From Ochromonas danica (taxonomy: Eukaryota > Sar > Chrysophyceae > Chromulinales > Chromulinaceae): a DNA stretch of 64,000 nt. The position numbers and the translations under genes are program-made. Positions 18,198 through 64,000 of this stretch are shown in pieces (position 1 is the stretch's first letter; the number at the start of each line of letters is the position of its first letter). The stretch covers positions 186,001 through 250,000 of the forward strand of contig VKHL01000009.1 in assembly GCA_015146655.1 (NCBI GenBank), in the 5' to 3' direction. The notes beneath the pieces are model-generated. The model was given only the letters and a program-made list of their open reading frames with translations. It was not told the DNA's origin and did not search any database.

Positions 18198-18581
18198 CTT
18201 ACTGACAAGATCAGACAAGCTATCAACCCATATAAAGTTTTCTTCTCATGTATATGTAGTGGGCAATACCTGCTAATCAGACCACTTTTCAATTTCCTCC
18301 TCCCAACCCCCCCAATCAACCAAAAAACACTTCCAAATGAAACCGTGCTGCAAAAACAGTTTATGTTTGGTGGGTGGCAAAAGAAGAAGATCCAGATCAT
18401 GCAGAAAATGATGCGGAGAGAGATGAAAACGCCGTGAAGTTCAGCTCGTCATGCGATCAATTGAGCTTACCATCTCTCTTGCATTGATCTACTTGTGATC
18501 TGCGTTGAGGAGATTTAGAGTAATGAGTGAAAGTGGTTGTCATACTGCTTGACGCGGGTCATGACCAATCTTGGAATTGAA
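18198..18581. other. Intergenic, upstream of the giant gene
   Basis: About 0.38 kb, AT/CT-rich, probably the promoter of the minus-strand gene. No other feature seen. Confidence 0.4.
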
Positions 18582-18910
18582 ATTTCGTTGGCCACCCTTG
18601 TCTGCTCAAACAGTCTTCTCGTTATCACATCAAATCCCAGTCAATCCTTTGCCGAATGATTCATCTCTTCTTCAAATATGACTTGTGGATAAGGATAATC
18701 TTCTCTTTTCTTGAAGTATCCCTGTTATTATTTTTTCTCCCTGTGATGATGCTTCCTTTCATTCTCATTCTGCTTTTGTTGGGAGGGTTGGTTTTCTTGC
18801 TGACCATCATTGCCATCTTCCACTGTCTTGATAGTCGTGTTTTTGATGATCGTGGCAGACTTTTACCTGGTCCTAGTAGTCATATATGGGGTAAATCCCT
18901 CTATGCCTCT
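18582..18910 (+). pseudogene. Truncated duplicate of P450 5' region
   Basis: This 329-bp block is nearly identical to 24387..24725 and covers the upstream region plus the membrane-anchor codons of the P450 gene. The main difference is a 10-bp gap (one copy of a short CTGCTGTCTT-type repeat). It carries ATG (18656) followed by the anchor sequence, whereas the complete gene has CTG at the equivalent codon. After the shared block the frame runs on for about 20 unrelated residues and stops at 18976, so no P450 catalytic core is present. It is a recent partial duplication. Confidence 0.85.
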
Positions 18911-24144: not shown

Positions 24145-24560
24145 GTTCACAGACTTCAGTCAAAAAAATCTTGTTAACGAGCGGGGAGGAGAGGGGAATG
24201 GAATGGAATGGTGGCATGGAATGCAATGCAATGCAATGGTCTTCGCTTCTGCTGGTCTTCTTTTGTTACAATTACAGTAATGTTTTGGAGGGTCCCCAAG
24301 TAATAAGCATTACTCCAAACTTTGATTTTACGAGTTTTTCTAGTGGAAGAGGCTGCATCTCCGATTTCCGGATTTCCGGATTTCAGATTTCGTTGCCCAC
24401 CTTTGTCTGCTCAAACAGTCTTCTGCTGTCTTCTCGTTATCACATCAAATCCCAGTCAATCCTTTGCCGACTGATTCATCTCCTCTTCAAATATGACTTG
24501 TGGATAAGGATAATCTTCTCTTTTCTTGAAGTATCCCTGTTATTATTTTTTCTCCCTGTG
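24145..24560. promoter_or_regulatory. Shared divergent promoter region of nuclease and P450 genes
   Basis: The 416-bp gap between two divergent starts must contain both promoters. It includes a GGAATG/GCAATG-type short repeat tract near 24195-24238 and, from 24387, the block duplicated at 18.6 kb. Confidence 0.5.
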
Positions 24561-24725
24561 ATGATGCTTCCTTTCATTCTCATTCTGCTTTTGTTGGGAG
24601 GGTTGGTTTTCTTGCTGACCATCATTGCCATCTTCCACTGTCTTGATAGTCGTGTTTTTGATGATCGTGGCAGACTTTTACCTGGTCCTAGTAGTCATAT
24701 ATGGGGTAAATCCCTCTATGCCTCT
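24387..24725 (+). repeat. Duplicated P450 promoter and 5' coding block
   Basis: This is the full-length partner of the copy at 18582..18910. Here the block continues into an intact P450. It contains a 10-bp tandem repeat unit absent from the other copy. Confidence 0.85.
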
Positions 24726-30351: not shown

Positions 30352-31014
30352 TAGAATCCAATAACACTCAACCCACATGAAAGAATGCATACTCCTTAAC
30401 CAGAAGTGTGTTGTAGTTGTCAGTAAATGTCATAAAGGAGATCTCTAACACAACACGAATAACAAGTAATAACCAGATGAAGAATAGTATGATACTGGTA
30501 TTATGTTCTACGTATGATATTAGGAGAATAATAGAAGATTAACATTGGATAATAAACTCTTTGATGTCGTTTGTGCTAATGCTTCTCGCTGCACACTAAA
30601 GACTCACAAACAAGAGCGTTTTAACGTGTCTTTGTTGTTGTTTCTGCTGCCACTCCCAAAAAAATCCATAGTCTAGCGTGTGCCAAAACTCCTGTTGATA
30701 GTGAATAGGAGCTCATCCCTCAATTCGGAACATACTACTTCAACTTGGACATCCCATTTACCAGTTGCAACATACAGACATATGCGACTCTTCCCAGTGT
30801 GGCAAAGCTTCTGCCGTGGATTTGAGAAAGAAGATTCGAACCTGCTGCAGCACGAGCAGCGGCACCACTTGGAGGTCAGAAGAGGAGATTCACTGCCCTT
30901 ACAATTTTTTTCGGTTTTTCAGAGTTTCGAACGCGTTTCTGGTAAGTGAAACACGTGGCCAAACAAGACCGTTTTCGAACGCGTTTCCAAAGATATCCCG
31001 GGATATCTAAAAGC
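30352..31014. other. Intergenic region upstream of methyltransferase copy 1
   Basis: About 0.66 kb. Two copies of a TTTCGAACGCGTTTC-like unit lie at about 30925 and 30972. No coding support for the short frames here. It is not related to the region upstream of the second methyltransferase copy. Confidence 0.5.
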
Positions 31015-31998
31015 ATGACCACCTTCCTCGCGACCTGCATCGCGCTGATAGCATTACTATTCACTCAAAATAGTGCTGCTTCTCATCACGGCTTCAATAC
31101 TACCCATTATGTTGAGAAACTTTATCACCGTTTTCGAAAGGATCTTGTTGGGATGCATGCTCTAATGGATGAGTGGACCAGCCTGAACAAAACGTCTTTG
31201 GTTAAAATTTGCCATGCTCATATGTCTGTCCAAGAGACGGAGCTACTCTATATGCGTGTTCGTGCCGCGAAGCCACGTCTCGTTTTCGAGCTTGGCCCTG
31301 CTTGTGGATGGTCCTCACAAGCCATTCTGTTGGCCTTGGAACACAACCAACAGGGAGAGCTGTATTCATATGACATGGAGAGAAAGGCTCCGCGTGTCAT
31401 AGGTGCATTGTCTAAAGGTGAGGTCTTATCCAAGCGCTGGGTCTTCACGAAGGGACTGGTGCAGAATACGTACCAGGCGAAGACTTGGGACTTCGTCTAT
31501 ATCGATGCTCTGCATGAGAATCACTTCTCGAGATGGTATGTGGATCATATCTTGGCTCCTCTCACTCAGAGAGCATACCCAAGAGACACTACGCCACTCA
31601 TCCCCGTACAGATTCACGACATCTACAACCCCTTCCTCATTCCTGGGGGATATATGCAGTGTGTGAAAAATGCAGCAACGATCTCAGGAATTGTGGAGGA
31701 GATCGCGTGCTTGGAAGAGATGACTCGTAAGGTCGTCTCTGAAGATGCGGGAGTGATGACGACGACGTCCACGCGCAATGTGATGTATGGAGCAGACGCA
31801 GTATCTGGAGAAGGAAGCATGGTTCTGGACTTTATTGCGTTTCATCATGATCATATCTATCATTTCTTCACGATATCTCCATTTCGAGATTTGGCATTGT
31901 TGAAGAGTGTACTTGCTATTCGCGAGTCATTGAAAATCGGAGAAGGTTTAAAGACGACACCTAATATCTATAATCCCAGTATATTCTTTCACTTGTGA
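31015..31998 (+). CDS. Secreted class I methyltransferase-like protein, copy 1
   Basis: 327 residues, one exon. A signal peptide (FLATCIALIALLFTQNSAAS) is followed by a class I SAM-methyltransferase-like (Methyltransf_24) core: motif I VFELGPACGWSSQ, an acidic end of strand two (YSYDM), WDFVYIDALHENH at motif post-II, and a late IHDIYNPFLIPGGYM. These are the features of O-methyltransferase-like domains often linked to sugar or cephalosporin-type enzymes, but the substrate is unknown. The first Gly-rich loop lacks the usual GxGxG and reads ELGPACG. The coding region is almost identical to copy 2 (32985..33968), while the upstream DNA is unrelated. Copy 3 lies at 48728..49711. Secretion is inferred from the leader. 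Confidence 0.75.
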   Translation: MTTFLATCIALIALLFTQNSAASHHGFNTTHYVEKLYHRFRKDLVGMHALMDEWTSLNKTSLVKICHAHMSVQETELLYMRVRAAKPRLVFELGPACGWSSQAILLALEHNQQGELYSYDMERKAPRVIGALSKGEVLSKRWVFTKGLVQNTYQAKTWDFVYIDALHENHFSRWYVDHILAPLTQRAYPRDTTPLIPVQIHDIYNPFLIPGGYMQCVKNAATISGIVEEIACLEEMTRKVVSEDAGVMTTTSTRNVMYGADAVSGEGSMVLDFIAFHHDHIYHFFTISPFRDLALLKSVLAIRESLKIGEGLKTTPNIYNPSIFFHL

Positions 31999-32984
31999 TG
32001 GTTTGCAGCCTTTGTTATTATTTTGGGTAATTGCTGTTCGGATATTCTATCATTGCAAATTTAGTGAAATTGGACAGCGATGGTTGTCCTCTGTAGGTTG
32101 TTTAGTGAGGTTTTGTAGTTTTTGCTCATTTAATTGTCCAGTCTACATCACCCATTTAGATTGTGATTTAGTGCTGCAAGTGATTTAGATTAGTAATTTT
32201 GTTATATTTTGGTTGTTTGTTGTGTTTTAAAATGGATTATCTCCGGAATTGGTCGTCTTCTTGCGCTGCAGCCACTTCGTCTTGTTTATAAAAGAGATTC
32301 GAATTAGCTGAAGAAAAGGCATTGTTATTGATATACGCTCAATCTACGAACCGGATCACTGTCGAGTGGAACAAAGAGTTCAATCACCCGCTACCTCGCC
32401 AGATGATCGACGACCTTCAAAGTCGGGAGTTTTACAACCTTTCGCAAGCTAACCTGCAGCACCGCCATTCACTTCAAGTAAATGTGTAGAAACATGAATA
32501 CACTAACGAGAAGCACACCCACTTTGAATGACCAGTAATCGGGTAGTGAGGTTAACTAGACCTACTGCCGTTTCCACCCCGCTTCTATTCAAATCTTGGA
32601 CGGGCGCGGATGTAAATACAAAGCATGGTCGACTTGGGTAAACTCCTTTGCAATTAGCCTGCTGGAAGCAGAAACTTTTCGTTTTCTCCTAAACAAGGGT
32701 GCTATGCCCAATTCGAAAGATTTTTCCTATCGCCTATGTTTAACATGCTTCAAGCAATTGGCTGTGAAGATCTCGGAGATGTTGATTTTCAAGAAACGGT
32801 GTCGATCTGAGAAAAACTGCTAAAAACGCGTCGCGGAGACAAGAGCTTGTGGGGGCGTGTTGATGTGCGAGGTGTGGCGATTGATGATGGGGAGTGTGGA
32901 ACTTGAAGGGTTTGGCCGCAATTCCAGGATTTGGGACCGAGAACCGAACATCTGAGGTCCAAATGCGACAGCCACAAATAGAAC
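31999..32984. other. Intergenic region between methyltransferase copies 1 and 2
   Basis: About 1 kb with only short unsupported frames. The first few hundred bases resemble, with many differences, the DNA downstream of copy 2 (for example the shared GTAATTGCTGTTCGGAT), which marks an older tandem duplication. Confidence 0.5.
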
Positions 32985-33968
32985 ATGTCAGCCTTCCTCG
33001 CGATCTGCATCGCGCTGATAGCATTACTATTCACTCAAAATAGTGCTGCTTCTCATCACGGCTTCAATACTACCCATTATGTTGAGAAACTTTATCACCG
33101 TTTTCGAAAGGATCTTGTTGGGATGCATGCTCTAATGGATGAGTGGACCAGCCTGAACAAAACGTCTTTGGTTAAAATTTGCCATGCTCATATGTCTGTC
33201 CAAGAGACGGAGCTACTCTATATGCGTGTTCGTGCCGCGAAGCCACGTCTCGTTTTCGAGCTTGGCCCTGCTTGTGGATGGTCCTCACAAGCCATTCTGT
33301 TGGCCTTGGAACACAACCAACAGGGAGAGCTGTATTCATATGACATGGAGAGAAAGGCTCCGCGTGTCATAGGTGCATTGTCTAAAGGTGAGGTCTTATC
33401 CAAGCGCTGGGTCTTCACGAAGGGACTGGTGCAGAATACGTACCAGGCGAAGACTTGGGACTTCGTCTATATCGATGCTCTGCATGAGAATCACTTCTCG
33501 AGATGGTATGTGGATCATATCTTGGCTCCTCTCACTCAGAGAGCATACCCAAGAGACACTACGCCACTCATCCCCGTACAGATTCACGACATCTACAACC
33601 CCTTCCTCATTCCTGGGGGATATATGCAGTGTGTGAAAAATGCAGCAACGATCTCAGGAATTGTGGAGGAGATCGCGTGCTTGGAAGAGATGACTCGTAA
33701 GGTCGTCTCTGAAGATGCGGGAGTGATGACGACGACGTCCACGCGCAATGTGATGTATGGAGCAGACGCAGTATCTGGAGAAGGAAGCATGGTTCTGGAC
33801 TTTATTGCGTTTCATCATGATCATATCTATCATTTCTTCACGATATCTCCATTTCGAGATTTGGCATTGTTGAAGAGTGTACTTGCTATTCGCGAGTCAT
33901 TGAAAATCGGAGAAGGTTTAAAGACGACACCTAATATCTATAATCCTAGTATTTTTTTCCATATCTAA
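32985..33968 (+). CDS. Secreted class I methyltransferase-like protein, copy 2
   Basis: 327 residues, single exon, with the same signal peptide and SAM-methyltransferase-like core as copy 1. Differences seen are confined to the first few residues (MSAFLAIC against MTTFLATC) and the last residue. The near identity starts within the start codon region and ends just before the stop, while flanks are diverged, which suggests recent homogenisation of the coding region. The first ATG (32985) is used. Substrate unknown; probably secreted or in the secretory pathway. Confidence 0.75.
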   Translation: MSAFLAICIALIALLFTQNSAASHHGFNTTHYVEKLYHRFRKDLVGMHALMDEWTSLNKTSLVKICHAHMSVQETELLYMRVRAAKPRLVFELGPACGWSSQAILLALEHNQQGELYSYDMERKAPRVIGALSKGEVLSKRWVFTKGLVQNTYQAKTWDFVYIDALHENHFSRWYVDHILAPLTQRAYPRDTTPLIPVQIHDIYNPFLIPGGYMQCVKNAATISGIVEEIACLEEMTRKVVSEDAGVMTTTSTRNVMYGADAVSGEGSMVLDFIAFHHDHIYHFFTISPFRDLALLKSVLAIRESLKIGEGLKTTPNIYNPSIFFHI

Positions 33969-34412
33969 TATTCTACGGCTATTGGTATTGTTGTGAGTAA
34001 TTGCTGTTCGGATTTTGAATAAACGCGAAAATTCCGATGGTTAGCTTCGCTTGGTTTGTTTTAATTTAGATCGCCGTGCTTACTCTTTTGCCCATTATTC
34101 AGTATTGCCAGCTAAAGTGCCGCTTGTCTTGCTTGATTTCGGTAGTTTATTGTGTTTGACAAGTGAATCTCTCCGGAGTTTGTCTTCTCTCTTCTATTGA
34201 TCGTTGTTTGAATGTCATGACGTTAACACAACAAGTAATTCATTTGATTTGCTACTGTACGACTTTTCCATTCCCTCAAGCAACAAACAGTAGTTTACAG
34301 AATTTACATATCTTACACTTCCAATTTCCATACTAACACAAAATCCCACTTACAGCACCCATGGATTTTCAAAGACATGAAACTGAGCACAAATGAACTA
34401 TCTAACAGCCAA
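33969..34412. other. Convergent intergenic region
   Basis: About 0.44 kb between copy 2 and the convergent gene at 34.4 kb. It starts with DNA distantly similar to that after copy 1. No other feature. Confidence 0.45.
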
Positions 34413-48727: not shown

Positions 48728-49711
48728 ATGATGGCCTTCTTTACTGCCTATCTAACAGTAACAGCTTTACTACTCTTTGAAAGTAGTTACGCTTCTTATC
48801 ATGCCTTTAATCCTGACCATTATGTTGAGAAACTTTATCAACACTATCAAAAGGATCTTGTTGGGTTGCATGCTCTAATGGATGAGTGGACCAACTTGAA
48901 CAAAACGTCTTTGGTTAATATTTGCCATGCTCATATGGCCATCGAAGAAACAGAGCTGCTCTATATGCGTGTTCGTACTGCGAAGCCACGTCTTGTCTTC
49001 GAGCTTGGCCCTGCTTGTGGATGGTCGTCACAAGCCATTCTGTTGGCCTTGGAACACAACCAACAGGGGGAGCTGTACTCATATGACATGGAGAGAAAGG
49101 CTCCGCTTGTCATAGGCGCATTGTCTAAAGGTAAGGTCTTATCCAAGCGGTGGGTCTTCACGGAGGGACTGGTGCAGAATACGTACCAGGCGAAGACTTG
49201 GGACTTCGTCTATATCGATGCTCTGCATGAGAATCACTTCTCGAGATGGTATGTGGATCATATCTTGGTTCCTCTCACTCAGAGATCATACCCAGCACAC
49301 ACTACGCCACTCCTCCCCGTACAGATTCACGACATCTACAATCCCTTCCTCATTCCTGGGGGATATATGCAGTGTGTGAAAAATTCGGCGACGATCTCAG
49401 GAATTGTGGAGGAGATCGCGTGCTTGGAAGAGGTGACGCGTAAGGTCGTCTCTGAAGATGCGGGAGTGATGACGACGACGTCCATGCGCAATGTGATGTA
49501 TGGAGCAGACGCAGTATCTGGAGAAGGAAGCATGGTTCTGGACTTTATTGCGTTTCATCATGATCATATCAGTTATGTCTTCACCATATCTCCATTTCGT
49601 AATTTGGCTTTGTTGAAGAGTGTACTTGCTATTCGCGAGTCATTGAAAATCGGAGAAGGTCTGAAGACAGAATATAACAAGTACAATCCCAGTATATTCT
49701 TCCATATGTAA
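48728..49711 (+). CDS. Secreted class I methyltransferase-like protein, copy 3
   Basis: 327 residues, single exon, starting at ATG 48728 (a second Met follows directly). It has the same signal peptide plus SAM-methyltransferase-like layout as copies 1 and 2 about 15 kb away: FELGPACGWSSQ, WDFVYIDALHENH, IHDIYNPFLIPGGYM. The first ~75 residues differ at many positions (AYHAFNPDHYVEK-type against SHHGFNTTHYVEK), whereas the central 700 bp is very close at the DNA level. This patchwork fits partial gene conversion or selection for a varied N-terminus. Substrate unknown. Confidence 0.75.
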   Translation: MMAFFTAYLTVTALLLFESSYASYHAFNPDHYVEKLYQHYQKDLVGLHALMDEWTNLNKTSLVNICHAHMAIEETELLYMRVRTAKPRLVFELGPACGWSSQAILLALEHNQQGELYSYDMERKAPLVIGALSKGKVLSKRWVFTEGLVQNTYQAKTWDFVYIDALHENHFSRWYVDHILVPLTQRSYPAHTTPLLPVQIHDIYNPFLIPGGYMQCVKNSATISGIVEEIACLEEVTRKVVSEDAGVMTTTSMRNVMYGADAVSGEGSMVLDFIAFHHDHISYVFTISPFRNLALLKSVLAIRESLKIGEGLKTEYNKYNPSIFFHM

Positions 49712-51574: not shown

Positions 51575-51627
51575 CTTATTAAGTTAACGACATGTTAACC
51601 TGGTCAACATGTCGTTAACTTAATAAG
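51575..51627. repeat. Perfect palindrome, 22-bp arms
   Basis: Arms 51575..51596 and 51606..51627 are exact reverse complements around a 9-nt spacer. The arm contains TTAAGTTAAC and GACATGTT. It lies just upstream of the methyltransferase start on the minus strand. Confidence 0.95.
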
Positions 51628-52073: not shown

Positions 52074-52198
52074 CTACGTCGCTGACAAGAAGGCCTCATA
52101 TTCTCATACAACTGAGTATCAGATCCGGAAGCTGTCCATCAGCTTCCGGATCTGATACTCAGTTGTATGAGAATATGAGGCCTTCTTGTCAGCGACGT
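52074..52198. repeat. Perfect 60-bp inverted repeat with 5-nt loop
   Basis: Left arm 52074..52133 and right arm 52139..52198 are exact reverse complements, separated only by TCCAT. A transcript across it would fold into a 60-bp hairpin. It does not lie in any recognised gene. A fold-back element, a small-RNA precursor, or an assembly/cloning artefact are all possible. Confidence 0.95.
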
Positions 52199-53327
52199 AT
52201 AAAAATTGTGTATGACACTATTGCTGATGCTGCTGGCGTCACTGCCGATGTACCCAAGAAGAGGCCCAGAGAAGCCAAGCTGCCCTATCAGCGGCAGTAT
52301 TCCCCCCTGTTTTAATTTTCGACAGTCTTCCTCTGAACAGATTTCTCATACCGAGCAAAAGAAGGAGGGTATGGATGTGAATGATGAGGACGATGATATC
52401 GAGAGGAGGGTACTGAACAGCTGGGCCCTTCAACATCAACGTCAACACTATTATCCCGCTTTCCCAGCCTTCTGAGGAGAAGAAGCTCTTCAAGACTCTC
52501 AGCGAAGCAAAGAGATTAAGCGTGGCGATGAAGCTGCTGAAGAGTCTTTGGTAGACACTGGGCGAACTACATGACCTGCACCTAGATCCCTGCACTGCTG
52601 AGGGTGAGAACAACATGCCCACTGTGACCTACTTAGGCCGACTCACACTGTCTATGCTGATCTACGACAACAAGGACGACCAGCCTGATAGAGTAAAGGC
52701 GAAGTTGATGAAGCGGAATGATGGAACTGCAGCTGCCACTAGTTCTGCTCCAGTTTATGCCAAGGCTGATGAACAAAGATTAAGTGGAGCGGGCAAAGGT
52801 GAGAGTGAGCTATGAACAGTTTGAAAGAGTTGTAGCTGCGACTATGATGATGATGATGGGGGAAAGTCTGAGAGGAGCAAAGGAGCTGTTGCAAATGATA
52901 GGGTAGTGGCTACCAGTGTAGTAGCTACAGTGTGTAGCAATGAACTTCAATGTTCTTAAGTTTTTACAGTTTACTACAACCCATTGAACGGAAAGGCGTG
53001 CGAGGACTGCACAACACTTAAATCACGCAATTATCTTACACACATACCTCTAGCCCACACTACTCCCAATTACTATCTTCTTAGTGATAATCCTCATCAG
53101 AGGATATCTGGATCCAGCTCCTAAACAGACTGCTTCCACAGCGGAGACGCTACCACAGATGGACCAACTGACCCTCCACACAGGAGTCTCGATGATGCAC
53201 AGCTGCATAGGTTCCCAAGTATCCTTCTCATTCTGTTTCCAAATGAAGAAGTTTCTGTCTTCGCTGCACCTGCCAATGTCATCAACTCCTTGATGACTGC
53301 TGCTCTGCCTAACCTCTTTCAGCGCCC

Positions 53328-57031: not shown

Positions 57032-57758
57032 CTCTTCACCCGCCCAAAAGGTCAATCAAATACAAACTACAAGGTGGAAATCACTTCAATTGGTTTGCTT
57101 TAGCCTTGGGGCGGTCGTGATGGACTGCAGGGACGCTTCCGGGAAGACCACGCCTCCCCACACACCCACTACCACAGATGTGAAGTTAAAAGAATGTGAA
57201 GTTAAAAGGACACAAAAGACTCCCCATTAAACCGTTTCTTCTCCAACAAAACAAACGCGATTTTCGAATCTTGGCAAGTTCCAGAGTTTGCACTCTGATC
57301 TGGTGGATAACAAAAACACAATCAAATCCCATCCTCTCTTCTTGTCTTCTCTCTCTTAGTTTGATATCTATTTTGTTAGGGAAGGTTATTGAGAAATAGC
57401 TAGCGGTAAATAAGAAAAAATGAAAGAATGGGATAATCAAAAATGCACAGTTTTTATCATTACAAAAATTTGCAATTCAATTTGATCTTCCCCTGACCTG
57501 GTACTACTGCTGTATCTCTTTTCCTCTTCACGTTTGTTGTGCTTGCTTTAACAAAAAATAATGATCAAAGGACAAAGAAGTGCAGTCGTAGTTGTTTTCA
57601 TCACCGCCTATGACTGCACTTCTTTGTCTTTTGATCATATTTTAAACTTTAAACTTGTCATCCTAAAGGGCTATAACGTTATTTTGCACAATAGCAATAA
57701 TAGTGTCTTGTTGTTATTTATATATAGTGAATTCAAAGCATCTTCCAAGACTTAACCT
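57032..57758. other. Intergenic region with a hairpin
   Basis: About 0.7 kb. Besides the hairpin at 57561..57638 only short unsupported frames are seen. Confidence 0.5.
57561..57638. repeat. Imperfect hairpin, 31-bp arms
   Basis: Arms 57561..57591 and 57608..57638 pair at 29 of 31 positions around a 16-nt loop. Both mismatches would form G-U pairs in one of the two transcripts. No gene overlaps it. Confidence 0.9.
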
Positions 57759-57914
57759 CAACTCAACCACTATCATTACCTCATAAGCTTTAACGTCCTC
57801 TTTCACTTCTTAGCCTTGGTTGTACTAATATAGCAGAGAACTGTGTGGCCCAAACAAGGAGGGGGAGTGAGAAGATAGTGGAAAATAGATATAAAGAAAG
57901 CACTTACCATTATT
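57759..57914 (-). repeat. Inverted repeat arm A (LSm6 3' end)
   Basis: 156 bp matching the reverse complement of 58348..58503 at all but two positions, without gaps. It contains the last codons of LSm6 exon 1, its 67-nt intron, the final exon and about 45 bp of downstream DNA. Confidence 0.95.
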
Positions 57915-58147
57915 GCCACGAATAAAACAGTCAACATGCTTGTTCTTGAGTTGGCCATCAACATATTCCTCAGTCTCTTCCATGATGGCAATGTTCATGA
58001 AGTCGTCCAGACGCAGCACGCCCTTGTAAAGTTTTAGGTCACCCTCCCGAATGCAGCTTCACCACCACAGGCTTGCCTATTACCTGCTTTAAAAACTCTA
58101 TAGGGCTCTTCTTTAGCCCTAAGCTCTTTGTTTCAGTCGTTGTCTCT
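57803..58147 (-). pseudogene. LSM6: LSm6 (U6 snRNA-associated Sm-like) gene, 5' end lost and frame broken
   Basis: The coding pieces read FLKQVIGKPVVVKLHSGG, then in another frame LKLYKGVLRLDDFMNIA, EETEEYVDGQLKNK and CFIRGNN, and across a 67-nt intron (57841..57907) VLCYISTTKAKK. This is the complete Sm1-Sm2 fold of LSm6, part of the LSm1-7 and LSm2-8 rings for mRNA decay and U6 RNA. Two problems: an in-frame TGA followed by C near 58040, where +1 shift restores the frame, and no start codon, because the 5' side runs directly into a copied piece of the NHL gene. Sequence conservation is otherwise excellent, so the damage is recent or one base is a sequencing error. An intact LSm6 should exist elsewhere. 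Confidence 0.8.
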
Positions 58148-58327
58148 TCTGTTTGTTGCTGACCATTCCGCCTATTCGCTTATCCGATATGTGAACTTCT
58201 CGAGTTCGTCTGTTGCGACTTATGCTGGATGTCGCGGCAGTATGTCGATGAATTACGACGGCGTTGTTGCAACCGCGATCGCTCTAAACGCTATTTCGCA
58301 TATATGTGGCGATGAGAAAGGGAATCT
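58148..58327 (+). pseudogene. 180-bp copy of NHL gene fragment
   Basis: This segment is identical as far as I can read to 60403..60582 inside the NHL-repeat gene downstream, in the same orientation. It has no start or stop context of its own and lies between the two arms of the LSm6 inverted repeat. Confidence 0.95.
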
Positions 58328-58347
58328 CTTCCAGGGTGACAGAAGAG

Positions 58348-58503
58348 AATAATGGTAAGTGCTTTCTTTATATCTATTTTCCACCATCTTCTCACTCCCC
58401 CTCCTTGTTTGGGCCACACAGTTCTCTGCTATATTAGTACAACCAAGGCTAAGAAGTGAAAGAGGACGTTAAAGCTGATGAGGTAATGATAGTGGTTGAG
58501 TTG
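58348..58503 (+). repeat. Inverted repeat arm B (second LSm6 3' end)
   Basis: A plus-strand copy of the LSm6 splice donor, intron, last exon (stop included) and some downstream DNA, facing arm A. The spacer of 433 bp holds LSm6 exon 1 and the NHL fragment. Confidence 0.95.
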
Positions 58504-58621
58504 GGATTGACAGCTTCGATTATTATTGTGCCGCGGTGGAAATAGTCTGAGAGGTTTGTTGTTGTCTTTGATGAAGAAGAATCGCCGGAATTCAATTCTA
58601 GAATCGCTTTGATCTCATCAA

Positions 58622-61600
58622 ATGAGGAGTACTATGCTTGTCGGTGATTATTTTTGTCTGTTTATTCTTTCTTTCATATTCTATTCCAGGAAAACATATG
58701 CTGGTGTGAATTATTCAGTTTCTACAGTTCTGGGAGTGACAGACAAGACCATCTCAGAGTTGAATGCTATAGAAAACATAAACTCTCCTGCGCTTCCAAT
58801 GGGAGTGGCCACTTTGACTTCACCTCAGGCTTACCATTTTGTGGGCACAACAGGAAGTTATTATATTGCTGATTCGCAATATATTCGCAAATATGATCAA
58901 GCGACAGGGCTGTTGTCAATCTATGCTGGTGGGGGTGGCTCCCTCTCCAACAGCGTCACCAGAATGGTTGCAAAGCTTCATGATGTACGTGGAATAACTG
59001 GGGATACGTTAGGCAATATCTACTATAGCGAGTATCAATTGTGTGTAGTTAAAATGATCTATGCGACAACTGGTCGAGTGCAGACCATTGCAGGGAGGAT
59101 GAACAATTGCACGTATGACCCAAATGCGCGAGTTACCCTGAGTTCTCCTCTGGGGATCTTTTACTCCCCGCTATTCCATAAAATATATATAGCTGAGTCT
59201 GGTGCTCATACTGTCAGAGCGCTGGACTTGACCACCGGATCGGCTTCTATCGTCCTCGGTGAAGGGGGTATTGCTGGAGCAAGTATCCAATATCCTCTCT
59301 CCACGCAGTTGTATGATGTAGTGCAAGTCTATGTTGACTCTAGGGGGCGACTCTATTCTATGGAAAAAGGCGGAAACCGCATCCTCAGGTCGACTTTGGG
59401 AAGCGATGGCTTGGCTAACTCCTCACTTACAGTCGAGCTTATGGTCGGAGGTTCGGGTCCAAGTAACGATGGCAGCCCTGCTAATCAAACTTCAATTATG
59501 GACCCTATTTGCTTTGGGGTGGATAGTCAAGATAATATCTTTCTCGTCGAAAACGGCAACTCGATTCGTCGAGTACTTTCTCACACAGGGTTGATCGAAA
59601 CCATCAGCGATAGTTCAGCTTCTTTGCTTTTATCGGGTGTTTCTCTTCGCAGTCTTGGCCTGGTATATGTCCACTCCTGCACTATTGATACTAATGGCAG
59701 CTTTGTCTTTGCTTCATCAGACAACTACAACCCATTGTTTGCTCTGTGGAGCGTAAAAAGTCCAACCACCAGCGATCCTCTGGTTTATAGTATTAATAGC
59801 TATGTTGGTGGTGTTGAACGACCCGCAAATTACTTAGAACTTAGTCGTCCACCAGACATTTGGATCGACCAACACAACAACCTTTTCGTTAGCGACGCTA
59901 TTGGCAATGTCATTCACAAAGTTGAAGTTTACAGAGGATTAACTTCAATCTATGCTGGCGCGAAGAACTCTCAGGGAGGTACATATACGGGTTCCAATTC
60001 ACTTGCCACAATGTCTCTCCTGTCGAGACCTCTCGATGTGGTTGGTGATCTACACGGAAATCTATACATCAATGATGTAGGAAACACTATCGTCCGAAAA
60101 GTTGTATCTGATACGGGCATTTTAATTGACCTGGTAGGTTCAATTGGGGTAAGTTGTGATGGAAGTTGGTCAACAGATTCTACTGGAGCCGCGGCAGTTC
60201 TCTGTCAAGTCACAGCCTTGGCCATAGATGCTGCTAGGAATATTCTTTACATTGCGGAAGGAAGCTTTGTGAGAAAGTATGACATAGGCTCAGATCTGTT
60301 GCAAACTGTTGTTGGGAATGATCAGGCAGGTGATCTGGACGGTGCCATTGCCGTCAGCACTTTCTCCAACATTGTTGATATGTGGGTGGACTCAGCCAGT
60401 AATCTGTTTGTTGCTGACCATTCCGCCTATTCGCTTATCCGATATGTGAACTTCTCGAGTTCGTCTGTTGCGACTTATGCTGGATGTCGCGGCAGTATGT
60501 CGATGAATTACGACGGCGTTGTTGCAACCGCGATCGCTCTAAACGCTATTTCGCATATATGTGGCGATGAGAAAGGGAATCTTTTCTTTGTTGATCTTTC
60601 CTTTGGAGTGAGAATGATCGATTCAATCACGAGAAATGTCTCTTCGGTGGTGGGAAACAAGACTCTTTCTGAGGGAGAGTCTGAGTTTGTACCTCCAACA
60701 AATGCCATCGGCTGGCCTGGAGCATGCAGTGTTGATTTGCATGGTAACCTTTACTTTGCTGAGAATGTCTCTTCATGGGACATTATTAGAGTGAGGGAAA
60801 AGTCGATTATCACGATGCCAACCTCTAGACCTTCTTCTACCCCAACCTCCCAACCTACTGAGATCAATTTAGGCCCTCTGACTATTATTCATACCTATGG
60901 AGGTTATACGAGCAGCTCCTTCGACAGTAGAGGTGATGGTGGACCTTCCCAATACGCGGCCATTAGCACTCCGCGAGGCATCACACAAGATAGCACAGGA
61001 GATATTTACTTTGCTGAAGGCACAAACATTCGTAAGATATTTGCCAGCAATAATACTATAATTACCCTTGCGGGAGGTGGAGAGTCTTTCAACGACCACA
61101 TATCTGGTACATTGACTGCAATTCGCACGGCATATGGCATCGCTGTGGACGGAGCTGGTGTTGTCTATTATTCGGATGCTGACGACAACAAGGTTCGCAT
61201 AATTTTGACGAATCAAACGGTAGTCACTATTGCTGGGAATGGAACTGCTGGGTTCTCGGGAGATGAGGGCCCTGCAACTTCTGCAATGTTGAATAACCCA
61301 CAGGGCATCTTTTACCATGCTTCCTCCCACTCTCTCTTCATAGCAGATAGTGGTAATTGTTTGATTCGCAAAGTAGAATTGGACCAAATGGTCATCAAAA
61401 CCTTTGCAGGCAATGGGACTTGTTCCGCTCCAACGAACAATGTTTCTGCATTGCTGGCAACCAGTATCGGTCAGCCAATTGGTATTTGGATTGATAGTCT
61501 CGGTGATTTGTATTTCACCGAGAACAGCGGTTGTGGGGTTCACAAGATTATTTCTTCTTCCAATTGGATTATTCGTATTGCAGGCAGTGGAAGTTGTATT

Positions 61601-64000
61601 TATAATGGTGTGACTGAAGGACCTATAACATCTGTTTCCATTGCAAGATGGCTCGCAATCACCGGTGATAATCACGGCAATATCTTTGCATCTGGAGGTG
61701 GTCTAAATGGCGTTCGTGTCATCAACACCACCAATAACACGATGACCCTCTTGACTGCCTCATCCACAAGCAGTTTGCTTCTTGCTAGCGATTATCCAGT
61801 CAAGTTTGTGAGATCGGGAGCAGCTTATGGCTGTCATTACGATAACCAAAGAAATACTTTGCTCGCAACAGATTCTATTAACAACATGGTATGGAAAGTT
61901 GATATGAAAACGCAACGCATTTATTCTGTTGTGGGTTTTATTAACAATGTGATTGTCTATCCAGCCACTAGCGTCTCCATGACATCTGTGATATATTTGT
62001 GGATGGACACAAATGATGCAATTTATTTGAGTGATCAAGATCGGCATCAAGTGTTGAAGCTGACCAAAACAGTCGGAGATTCACAACAAGCCTCGTTATC
62101 AATTGTAGCAGGTGCAGGACTGAGTGGATATAATGGAGATAATCAATTAGCAACCTTGGCGGCCTTGAATACGCCGAAAGGCATCTGTGGGGATAACGTG
62201 GGAAATCTATATGTTGCTGAGCAAGGTGGTTACCGTATTCGCAAACTCTATCCCAATCAAACAATAACCACAATCGCTGGAACAGGCATTGGGTGCACAG
62301 ATCCAAGTCCAACAACCTTCACCGGACCTGCAACATCTCTCCATTTATGTGGGATAAGAGCTATTACCATCGATCGCAATGGCAGCAGTCTATATTTTGT
62401 GGATCGTATGTATATGATTAGAATGGTGGACTTGTTTGATGGCAGCACCATAACTATAGCAGGCAGCAGTGCGGCGGGTTTGATGGTCAACGTCCCCCCT
62501 ATAGAAGCTGTCTATGGCGAAATAAATGATGTTTGGATGGACAATATGAATCGATTATTTGTTTCTGACGCATCAAATTCTGTGGTTCATTTGATTGATT
62601 TTGAGGCCAACAAATCCTCCATCTTTGTTGGAGTGCCAGGACAAAGTAACTACAATGGAGAAGGCTGGCCATCAACATTGGCGCATCTTAGCAATCCTGG
62701 CGGATTATGTGGAGATTCTATCGGCAACATCTTCGTCCCTAATTTGGTGAATGGCGGAGGTTTGATGGTAGTTGGGCACCACACCAATCGCCTCTACACT
62801 TTCTCTGGAAACCATCTTGCTGGATTAGGAGGTGAATTTGTATCCGCCACCTCGGCTTCTACAGGTTATGTGTACAAATGTGTCGCAGATAGAAATGGAG
62901 GTATCTATTACACAGAGGGTAGTACAACTATAGGAAATCGTGTGCGATATGTGAATGTTGTATATCCTACATCGGCACCCTCCAGTCCTCCTGCACCAAT
63001 TTTCACCAGAAAGGTAAAGACTGTGGGTGGTTTTACTCGGACGTTCTATAATGTCAACAGAGGTGATGGTGGTCCTTTGAGTGAAGCTATTCTGTATAAT
63101 CCAATTGGAGTATATATTGATACTTCTAATAATATGTATATTGCCGAATTTAACTACCTACGAGTGGTCAATGGTACAACCAACATCATAAGCACTCTAG
63201 CTGGTGGCGGAAGCTCTTCAGCTAGTGGTATTTCTGGCCAGAATGTTATCATCTTGTCTGCCTATGGGGTAGCAGGTGACGAAAACGGAAACATCTTCTT
63301 CAGTGATCGTGGCCGTAATCAAATACTCGCCTACCGGCCTTCTACTCAACTTGTCTATGCTATCGCCGGTGAGTATGGAGTGAGTGGTTATAATGGCGAT
63401 TCTGACCTTGCCATTTATGCTCACCTTAATACACCTTGCGGTCTCTTTTATCACCCTAAGAAAGGGTATCTGTACTTTGTCGATCGAGTCAATGCTGTCA
63501 TTCGATATATTGATGTGCGGAACACATCAAAGATCTATACATTGAACCTTGTCTTCCCCGCGCAGATTGCTCCAGCTTCTCTTAGTGGACCGCTCGACAT
63601 TTGGGTGGATGTTTCCAAAGATTTGCTATTTGTTACGGATACAGCTTTTCCTCGAATCTTGAGAGTTGATCTCCTCACATCTAATGTTACCACATTCGCT
63701 GGAACTGGCAGTAACACCGTGTCAGCTCTAATTGAGGGAGTGATGGCAAATCAGACTGCTATCACTTTTGCGAAGGCCATTTGCGGAGACGCCCAGGGAA
63801 ATATCTACTTTGGTCAACAGAGTAATAGTGGGTATTACGGCGTTGATCCGAATGGGAAGCTCTTCAGAGCGGCTGGAATGAGGTTGAATATCCTTCTAGC
63901 ATCAAATATCTCTGCAAGAGAAGTCTTCATCGGTAGCAACAGTGGCGGCTGTAAAGTGGACCAAATTGGTAACTTGATTATTACTGATGCAACGAGCAGT
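58622..64000 (+). CDS. Giant secreted NHL-repeat protein (3' end outside window)
   Basis: A single open frame of at least 1,793 codons runs from ATG 58622 (or 58634) to the window edge. A signal peptide (YFCLFILSFIFYS) is followed by many NHL/YWTD-like blades: each repeats IYIADSGN-IRKV-type strands with AGNGTAGFSGD-like loops, as in KIYIAESGAHTVRALDLTTG, LFIADSGNCLIRKVELD and LYVAEQGGYRIRKLYPN. These fold as beta-propellers that bind proteins or sugars. PTSRPSSTPTSQPT and YPTSAPSSPPAP linkers split the array into at least three propeller blocks, a style common in diatom and chrysophyte secreted proteins. Numerous N-x-S/T sites fit secretion. There is no intron in the part seen. A possible splice at 58689 is unnecessary, since the frame is open through it. 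Function unknown; cell-surface or matrix role inferred. Confidence 0.85.
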   Translation, partial: MRSTMLVGDYFCLFILSFIFYSRKTYAGVNYSVSTVLGVTDKTISELNAIENINSPALPMGVATLTSPQAYHFVGTTGSYYIADSQYIRKYDQATGLLSIYAGGGGSLSNSVTRMVAKLHDVRGITGDTLGNIYYSEYQLCVVKMIYATTGRVQTIAGRMNNCTYDPNARVTLSSPLGIFYSPLFHKIYIAESGAHTVRALDLTTGSASIVLGEGGIAGASIQYPLSTQLYDVVQVYVDSRGRLYSMEKGGNRILRSTLGSDGLANSSLTVELMVGGSGPSNDGSPANQTSIMDPICFGVDSQDNIFLVENGNSIRRVLSHTGLIETISDSSASLLLSGVSLRSLGLVYVHSCTIDTNGSFVFASSDNYNPLFALWSVKSPTTSDPLVYSINSYVGGVERPANYLELSRPPDIWIDQHNNLFVSDAIGNVIHKVEVYRGLTSIYAGAKNSQGGTYTGSNSLATMSLLSRPLDVVGDLHGNLYINDVGNTIVRKVVSDTGILIDLVGSIGVSCDGSWSTDSTGAAAVLCQVTALAIDAARNILYIAEGSFVRKYDIGSDLLQTVVGNDQAGDLDGAIAVSTFSNIVDMWVDSASNLFVADHSAYSLIRYVNFSSSSVATYAGCRGSMSMNYDGVVATAIALNAISHICGDEKGNLFFVDLSFGVRMIDSITRNVSSVVGNKTLSEGESEFVPPTNAIGWPGACSVDLHGNLYFAENVSSWDIIRVREKSIITMPTSRPSSTPTSQPTEINLGPLTIIHTYGGYTSSSFDSRGDGGPSQYAAISTPRGITQDSTGDIYFAEGTNIRKIFASNNTIITLAGGGESFNDHISGTLTAIRTAYGIAVDGAGVVYYSDADDNKVRIILTNQTVVTIAGNGTAGFSGDEGPATSAMLNNPQGIFYHASSHSLFIADSGNCLIRKVELDQMVIKTFAGNGTCSAPTNNVSALLATSIGQPIGIWIDSLGDLYFTENSGCGVHKIISSSNWIIRIAGSGSCIYNGVTEGPITSVSIARWLAITGDNHGNIFASGGGLNGVRVINTTNNTMTLLTASSTSSLLLASDYPVKFVRSGAAYGCHYDNQRNTLLATDSINNMVWKVDMKTQRIYSVVGFINNVIVYPATSVSMTSVIYLWMDTNDAIYLSDQDRHQVLKLTKTVGDSQQASLSIVAGAGLSGYNGDNQLATLAALNTPKGICGDNVGNLYVAEQGGYRIRKLYPNQTITTIAGTGIGCTDPSPTTFTGPATSLHLCGIRAITIDRNGSSLYFVDRMYMIRMVDLFDGSTITIAGSSAAGLMVNVPPIEAVYGEINDVWMDNMNRLFVSDASNSVVHLIDFEANKSSIFVGVPGQSNYNGEGWPSTLAHLSNPGGLCGDSIGNIFVPNLVNGGGLMVVGHHTNRLYTFSGNHLAGLGGEFVSATSASTGYVYKCVADRNGGIYYTEGSTTIGNRVRYVNVVYPTSAPSSPPAPIFTRKVKTVGGFTRTFYNVNRGDGGPLSEAILYNPIGVYIDTSNNMYIAEFNYLRVVNGTTNIISTLAGGGSSSASGISGQNVIILSAYGVAGDENGNIFFSDRGRNQILAYRPSTQLVYAIAGEYGVSGYNGDSDLAIYAHLNTPCGLFYHPKKGYLYFVDRVNAVIRYIDVRNTSKIYTLNLVFPAQIAPASLSGPLDIWVDVSKDLLFVTDTAFPRILRVDLLTSNVTTFAGTGSNTVSALIEGVMANQTAITFAKAICGDAQGNIYFGQQSNSGYYGVDPNGKLFRAAGMRLNILLASNISAREVFIGSNSGGCKVDQIGNLIITDATSS

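What the first reader, a model, noticed from the sequence alone, without database searches (positions are those of the whole stretch)
57759..58503. Inverted duplication of LSm6 3' end enclosing a captured piece of the neighbouring NHL gene
Two 156-bp arms (2 mismatches) face each other across 433 bp. Between them lie LSm6 exon 1 and a 180-bp block identical to 60403..60582 of the downstream NHL gene. The same event appears to have removed the LSm6 start. The near identity of arms and fragment says it is recent. It looks like template switching with fold-back, or a non-autonomous fold-back element that picked up local exons, and shows how chimeric loci arise here.
Basis: seen in the sequence. 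Interest (0 to 1): 0.75.

Follow-up and report, generated by a model that had tools for sequence, protein, structure and literature searches.

The report
Scrambled repair scar in LSm6 pseudogene
A dead second copy of the LSm6 splicing gene had its start replaced by a patchwork copied from nearby DNA, part of it in reverse, which is a well-preserved scar of error-prone DNA copying rather than a working element.

Summary
In detail: arms 57754-57914 and 58348-58508 are 98% complementary, and 58148-58327 is identical to 60403-60582 of the NHL gene. An intact LSm6 on another contig (C50) gives the missing reference: window 57348-57461, 57645-58149 and 58507-58544 align to it in order. Against it the window lost about 47 bp, start codon included, and gained about 357 bp: 180 bp of NHL, a 20-bp linker and an inverted copy of LSm6's own 3' end. 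The linker is covered completely by three 8-10-nt pieces of LSm6 (2 of 20,000 random linkers do as well). The private substitutions lie in the right arm, so that arm is the copy. Best explanation: serial microhomology template switching with snap-back, during break repair or replication, in a gene copy that is now a pseudogene. A transposable element is contradicted (no further copy found); an assembly error is unlikely. Three further fold-backs lie at 51.6-57.6 kb; for one, and less surely a second, paralogues show a single arm. New member of a known kind; the polymerase is not identified.

The parts
57754..57914 (-). Left arm: original LSm6 sequence (last 7 nt of exon 1, intron 57841-57907, exon 2 57803-57840, 3' flank)
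   Evidence: 161-nt inverted repeat with 58348-58508, 4 mismatches; of 17 substitution differences from C50 in the arm region none is private to this arm
57908..58149 (-). Broken exon 1 of the LSm6 copy: no ATG, 10 extra bp that make a frameshift and an in-frame TGA; 8 synonymous and 8 non-synonymous codon changes against C50
   Evidence: alignment to L007 4323-4554
58148..58149 (.). Junction 1: LSm6 codon 2 / NHL block, 2-bp microhomology (TC)
   Evidence: junction print
58148..58327 (+). Copy of 180 bp of the neighbouring NHL gene, direct orientation
   Evidence: 180/180 identical to 60403-60582; only these two places found in the assembly
58328..58347 (+). 20-bp linker, covered by LSm6 pieces: 58325-58333 = 57974-57982 (+), 58333-58340 = 58038-58045 (-), 58339-58348 = 58143-58152 (-)
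   Evidence: full cover by exact matches of 8 nt or more; 2 of 20,000 random genomic linkers and 2 of 20,000 shuffles reach it (with 7-nt matches 67 and 19 of 20,000)
58348..58508 (+). Right arm: inverted copy of the LSm6 3' end; the derived copy
   Evidence: 4 private substitutions from C50, 2 of them in the outermost 5 bases
58507..58544 (-). Original 5' flank of LSm6, where the locus resumes after the insert
   Evidence: 90% match to L007 4236-4275
60403..60582 (+). Source of the NHL block
58622..64000 (+). NHL/teneurin-type beta-propeller gene, open to the window end; the first ATG of the frame lies about 115 bp from the insert
   Evidence: open frame of 1793 aa; TEN_NHL 3e-37
57556..57643 (.). 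Second fold-back, in the 3' flank of the same pseudogene (36-nt arms, 16-nt loop)
   Evidence: found once in the assembly; C50 seems to have one arm only, in a gappy alignment
52075..52199 (.). Third fold-back: 60/60-nt perfect arms, 5-nt loop, in a shortened member of a multi-copy gene family
   Evidence: paralogues L042-L044 have a single arm there; in L042 and L043 the downstream sequence resumes about 520 and 430 bp later
51575..51627 (.). Fourth fold-back, 26-nt arms as scanned
   Evidence: no paralogue to compare

Best explanation
A duplicated LSm6 copy suffered a break or stalled fork at its start codon. The end at LSm6 codon 2 was extended by serial template switching. By a 2-bp match it copied 180 bp of the NHL gene 2.25 kb away, then 9 nt of LSm6 exon 1. 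It then snapped back and copied, in reverse, 8 nt, 10 nt and 161 nt of LSm6, and was joined to the other end about 47 bp from where it began. The result is a templated insertion-deletion that left an inverted repeat. Shown: the parts, their order, the lost segment as judged by the paralogue, the microhomologies, which arm is the copy, and the pseudogene state. Inferred: one event, the direction of synthesis, and the repair pathway. Direction rests on the 10-nt linker piece, which matches 3 nt across junction 1, so that junction 1 would already have existed. The polymerase is not identified: 1-3-nt priming and reiterated short pieces resemble polymerase theta, while the 180- and 161-nt tracts are longer than its usual inserts and fit delta-type or break-induced synthesis (the last is my inference).
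For: C50 is collinear with both flanks of the insert. C50 LSm6 is complete (89 aa) and best matches PDB LSm6 chains. NHL copy 180/180. Linker fully covered by LSm6 pieces, equalled by 2 of 20,000 random linkers. Overlaps at the internal switches: 3, 1, 2 and 1 nt (coordinates), and 2 nt at junction 1. Private substitutions only in the right arm. No further copy found in the assembly. Another fold-back nearby with single-arm paralogues, a second less surely. A polymerase-theta-like gene is present: DNA_pol_A and a weak POLQ_helical match in one 2551-aa open frame on C65, polymerase theta the best solved relative of the part read. PMC11724301 (abstract, section 19): yeast complex insertions of two inverted fragments from one locus, 0-4 bp microhomology at break ends. 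PMC5068794 (abstract, sections 11-12): reiterated, error-prone templated inserts by POLQ.
Against: No reads, no second individual and no pre-insertion C9 allele: the earlier state is taken from a paralogue of 82-83% BLAST identity. The linker test was devised after the matches were seen, uses short matches, and counts junction-1 sequence as template; with 7-nt matches the controls reach it more often (67 and 19 of 20,000). The 10-nt piece could instead derive from the lost start region with a 3-nt gap. The last junction (58504-58508) carries bases that match neither parent cleanly. Overlaps of 1 nt are weak and were not compared with chance. The long tracts exceed typical POLQ inserts (PMC5068794). 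More than one event cannot be excluded.
Confidence: 0.85

Rival explanations
1. Assembly or amplification chimera: the inverted arm and the NHL block were joined in the library or by the assembler.
For: No read data at hand; inverted chimeras are a known artefact of whole-genome amplification (recalled, no call).
Against: Both flanks of the insert are adjacent and in order in C50, so an artefact would have had to resume at the right place with only about 47 bp lost. The arms differ at 2 of 156 inner sites and the private bases are all in one arm. The linker needs several further jumps.
Confidence: 0.06
2. A non-autonomous fold-back (Foldback/MITE-like) transposable element that captured local exons.
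For: Inverted arms around a spacer; captured gene pieces; a second small hairpin in the same pseudogene.
Against: Arms, block and the small hairpin were found only here, apart from their source copies and the paralogue (counts are lower bounds by the tool's own note). The arms are LSm6's own exon, intron and 3' flank, and only the right one is new. DNA was lost at the site, and no target-site duplication is seen by eye.
Confidence: 0.02
3. An incipient hairpin RNA locus: transcripts across the arms fold back and are diced, as in the inverted-duplication model of plant microRNA origin (PMC3237417, abstract).
For: A minus-strand transcript would fold at -410.9 kcal/mol, z -31 against 20 shuffles. 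The genome has 2 Piwi-domain loci, one with 2 stops in the match, and 4 loci with two RNase III matches each. Both arms share 25 nt with the intact LSm6.
Against: A 161-nt inverted repeat folds well whatever its role. The shared 25 nt straddle the 3' splice site of the C50 intron, so spliced LSm6 mRNA would mostly escape. No small-RNA data; no sign of selection.
Confidence: 0.04
4. Two or more separate events: an NHL insertion first, a fold-back later.
For: Parts could be added one after another; the 10-nt linker piece may have been copied across junction 1.
Against: All parts abut within one 47-bp loss, and neither the NHL block (0 of 180) nor the inner arms (2 of 156) show much divergence.
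Confidence: 0.12

Closest known systems
Templated and inverted insertions at DNA breaks in yeast (PMC11724301; abstract and section 19 read)
   Same: Inserts copied from elsewhere, inverted fragments from one locus, 0-4 bp microhomology at the ends, fold-back step.
   Different: There mostly 5-34 bp for the local fold-backs, or two inverted fragments from one distant locus; here 180 bp from a nearby gene plus 161 bp inverted from the broken locus itself, standing in a genome assembly.
Polymerase theta-mediated end-joining delins (PMC5068794; abstract, sections 11-12 read)
   Same: Deletion plus insert built of several short pieces, priming on very short matches, copy errors in the insert.
   Different: POLQ inserts there are mostly under 25 bp; the two long tracts here are far longer, and one comes from 2.25 kb away.
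Short-range template switches in great apes (PMC7954356; abstract read)
   Same: Switch to a nearby template that leaves an apparent cluster of changes.
   Different: Here a larger event with a second donor 2.25 kb away.
Small inverted triplications (PMC13334657; abstract and section 2.4 read)
   Same: Inverted fragment of about 160 bp (their median), short spacers, microhomology.
   Different: No flanking direct duplication of the arm is seen here; it is an inverted duplication with loss of DNA.

Membership tests
Templated insertion by serial template switching (MMBIR/TMEJ class) | Insert sequence derives from identifiable templates | tested here: met
   NHL 180/180; arm 154/156 inner; linker 20/20 covered by local matches of 8 nt or more
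Templated insertion by serial template switching (MMBIR/TMEJ class) | Microhomology at the switches | tested here: inconclusive
   1-3 nt at the five switches that can be read exactly; the last junction is blurred. Not compared with a chance expectation, and 1-nt overlaps are weak evidence.
Templated insertion by serial template switching (MMBIR/TMEJ class) | Insert lies between two flanks that are adjacent in the ancestral order, with local loss | tested here: met
   C50 paralogue: 47 bp between the two flank matches
Polymerase theta end joining in particular | Dependence on POLQ | not testable with these tools
   A POLQ-like gene is present, which does not show that it acted
Fold-back / MITE transposable element | Multiple dispersed copies with common ends | tested here: not met
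   Searches find no dispersed copy of the arms-plus-spacer unit or of the small hairpin (lower bounds by the tool's note)
Fold-back / MITE transposable element | Target-site duplication | tested here: not met
   Junction print read by eye and paralogue: loss of DNA, no duplicated target
Pseudogene of LSm6 | Relative of an intact LSm6 with disabled coding sequence | tested here: met
   No ATG, frameshift, stop; exon 1 identity 92.6% against 94.0% in the intron, gaps excluded
Processed (retro)pseudogene | Intron absent | tested here: not met
   67-nt intron kept, flanks shared with C50
Hairpin small-RNA locus | Diced small RNAs from the arms | not testable with these tools
   No RNA data; folding only

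The most novel reading that the evidence does not exclude
The stretch 51.5-58.5 kb is a hotspot of fold-back synthesis: four inverted duplications in 7 kb, at least one besides the finding with single-arm paralogues, in a genome where such scars can even stay in frame (a 201-bp near-palindrome, L042 693-893, inside an open frame of at least 525 aa). Here snap-back copying would be a regular source of new hairpin loci and, with Argonaute and Dicer-like genes present, of small-RNA precursors.
Probability: 0.12. Interest if true: 0.6.

Novelty: new member of a known kind. Interest (0 to 1): 0.36.

Why it matters
It is an unusually legible fossil of template switching in a eukaryotic genome: an intact paralogue gives the earlier order, the polarity of the arms can be read, and even the linker can be traced to likely templates. 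With the neighbouring fold-backs it makes the question whether this genome is prone to snap-back synthesis testable by a simple genome-wide scan. As a gene it is a dead copy and changes little.

Tried and rejected
Transposable element: rejected by copy number and lack of a visible target-site duplication. Retrocopy: rejected, intron kept. Loss of the only LSm6: rejected, C50 intact. Allelic haplotype rather than paralogue: 82-83% BLAST identity and different neighbours (cupin/JmjC, Tse2-like and pyridoxamine oxidase frames on C50, RRM and NHL genes on C9) speak against it. Known structured RNA: Rfam at gathering thresholds gives 0 matches in the window.

Rate of fold-backs: I wanted a larger sample than I could fetch. 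The estimate rests on 20 x 10 kb from C1-C8 and C10-C21 plus L007. The cluster P values are post hoc, use a rate from 2 events, and count the three neighbours without the finding itself. With the other scan (BLAST, arms of 40 bp or more, up to 10 kb apart) 2 of the 20 sampled stretches hold inverted repeats (L024, with arms up to 1.9 kb, and L031), so the rate depends on the definition. Literature: five searches gave the parallels cited; I make no claim that this kind of event is unpublished in protists. The organism was not identified.

Full report
Observation. The inverted repeat and the NHL copy are present as described. The arms are 161 nt (57754-57914 and 58348-58508) with 4 mismatches, of which 2 lie in the inner 156 nt; 433 nt lie between them. 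58148-58327 equals 60403-60582 at 180 of 180 positions, in the same orientation.

The key comparison. The window lies in a 31.2-Mb, 337-contig assembly (C9:186001-250000). A search of that assembly with 57759-58503 finds, besides the window itself, one more place: C50:73322-73705, 85% identical over the LSm6 part (the tool notes that its counts are lower bounds). That copy encodes a complete 89-aa LSm6 with one 76-nt intron, a Pfam LSM domain and PDB LSm6 chains as its best matches (E 3.3e-38). A protein search finds no other close match; the next hits, on C147 (41%) and C69 (30%), look like other Sm/LSm proteins (that is my reading, not tested).

Empty-site reading. C50 matches the window at 57348-57461, 57645-58149 and 58507-58544, all in one order and orientation. 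Between the last two, C50 has 47 bp (L007 4276-4322) including the ATG, whereas the window has about 357 bp. So only about 58150-58506 is new. LSm6 exon 1 and the left arm are the original gene. The right arm is the copy: of 17 substitution differences from C50 in the arm region, 13 are shared by both arms, 4 are private to the right arm (2 of these in its outermost 5 bases, where the junction blurs) and 0 to the left arm; 19 gap columns were set aside. The insertion is therefore much younger than the LSm6 duplication.

The linker. The 20 bp between the NHL block and the right arm (58328-58347) does not look like random filler. It is wholly covered by three exact matches to LSm6 57754-58152: 9 nt in direct orientation (57974-57982), then 8 nt (58038-58045) and 10 nt (58143-58152) in reverse. 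With the same surrounding letters, 2 of 20,000 linkers drawn at random from the 20 sampled stretches, and 2 of 20,000 shuffles, are covered as well; if 7-nt matches are allowed, 67 and 19 of 20,000. The test was set up after the matches were seen. Neighbouring pieces overlap by 3, 1, 2 and 1 nt (coordinates); junction 1 has 2 nt. I did not compute how often such short overlaps arise by chance. The last three pieces, all in reverse, read the same template strand, as expected of a strand that has snapped back. The 10-nt piece runs 3 nt across junction 1, which suggests that junction 1 came first. A match with a 3-nt gap to the lost start region (as judged from C50) is an alternative source for it.

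The gene is dead. Besides the missing ATG, exon 1 of the window copy has 10 extra bp that shift the frame into a TGA. Substitution identity to C50, gaps excluded, is 92.6% in exon 1, 94.0% in the intron, 94.3% in exon 2 and 86.1% in the 3' flank, with 8 synonymous and 8 non-synonymous codon changes counted in exon 1, codons with gaps left out. Exon 1 is thus no better conserved than the intron. Whether the frameshift preceded the insertion cannot be told, since that part of exon 1 is not in the arms. The intron and flanks are kept, so the duplicate arose at DNA level.

Not an element. No other copy of the unit was found, nor of the small hairpin in its 3' flank, and DNA was lost rather than duplicated at the target.

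Neighbouring fold-backs. A scan for inverted repeats (arms 20 nt or more, 88% or more, within 1.5 kb) finds 4 in the 64-kb window, all between 51.5 and 58.6 kb; 2 in the 20 sampled 10-kb stretches (L031, L037), 0 in L007, and 0 in one Markov resample of each of the 22 sequences. At 52075-52199 the arms are 60/60 identical with a 5-nt loop. Three paralogues (C233, C122, C113) have one arm only there. In two of them (L042, L043) the downstream sequence can be seen to resume about 520 and 430 bp further on, so this too looks like a fold-back with loss. The 57556-57643 hairpin seems to have one arm in C50, but the alignment is gappy there. L042 (C233) holds a near-palindrome at 693-893 (89%) within an open frame of at least 525 aa. 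Using the sampled rate, three further events in 7 kb have P about 5e-5, and three in 64 kb P about 0.02; both figures are post hoc and rest on a rate from two events. A BLAST scan with other limits finds inverted repeats in 2 of the 20 sampled stretches, L024 and L031.

Machinery. One 2551-aa open frame on C65 holds both a POLQ_helical match (27.4 bits, just over the 27.0 cut-off) and DNA_pol_A; the strongest POLQ_helical match is in another frame, on C234 (51.5 bits). The 849 aa of the C65 frame that I could read best match polymerase theta chains, with polymerase nu level with them (163.2 and 163.1 bits). Two Piwi loci, one with two stop codons inside the match, and four loci with paired RNase III matches make RNA silencing plausible. 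The minus strand of the whole unit folds at -410.9 kcal/mol (z -31; 20 shuffles), as any such inverted repeat would.

Comparison with print. PMC11724301 (abstract and section 19 read) describes templated inserts at yeast breaks, including two inverted fragments from one locus and 0-4 bp microhomology at break ends. PMC5068794 (abstract, sections 11 and 12 read) describes POLQ inserts built by reiterated priming, mostly under 25 bp and error-prone. PMC13334657 (abstract and section 2.4 read) describes small inverted triplications, which differ by their flanking direct duplication. PMC7954356 and PMC3237417 were seen as abstracts and outlines. Other papers were seen only in search listings. The scar found here is of this known kind, longer and more complex than the typical POLQ insert. 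The polymerase cannot be named from the sequence.

Noticed in passing
window 52075-52199: Perfect 60-nt fold-back with a 5-nt loop in a shortened member of a multi-copy gene family without a Pfam match over cut-off; paralogues L042-L044 have a single arm.
   Followed up: partly
window 51575-51627: 26-nt-arm palindrome, found once in the assembly.
   Followed up: partly
L042 693-893 (C233): Near-palindrome (89%) inside an open frame of at least 525 aa: an inverted duplication that kept the frame open.
   Followed up: partly
L024 5-6813 (C7:40005-46813): Large inverted repeat, arms of 1.9 and 0.6 kb at 98% identity.
   Followed up: no
L031 4953-8462 (C15): Cluster of 239-bp inverted and 450-bp direct repeats at 95-97%.
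   Followed up: no
window 31014-32046 and 32984-34016: Pair of near-identical genes (97.7%) of about 330-350 aa; a third, diverged relative (by eye) is at 48728-49711.
   Followed up: no
window 18573-18910 and 24378-24725: 348-bp direct repeat at 95%, 5.5 kb apart.
   Followed up: no
L007 5101-5697: Frame next to the intact LSm6 matches Pfam ADPRTs_Tse2 (2.2e-24), a domain named after a bacterial toxin, in a genome with introns.
   Followed up: no
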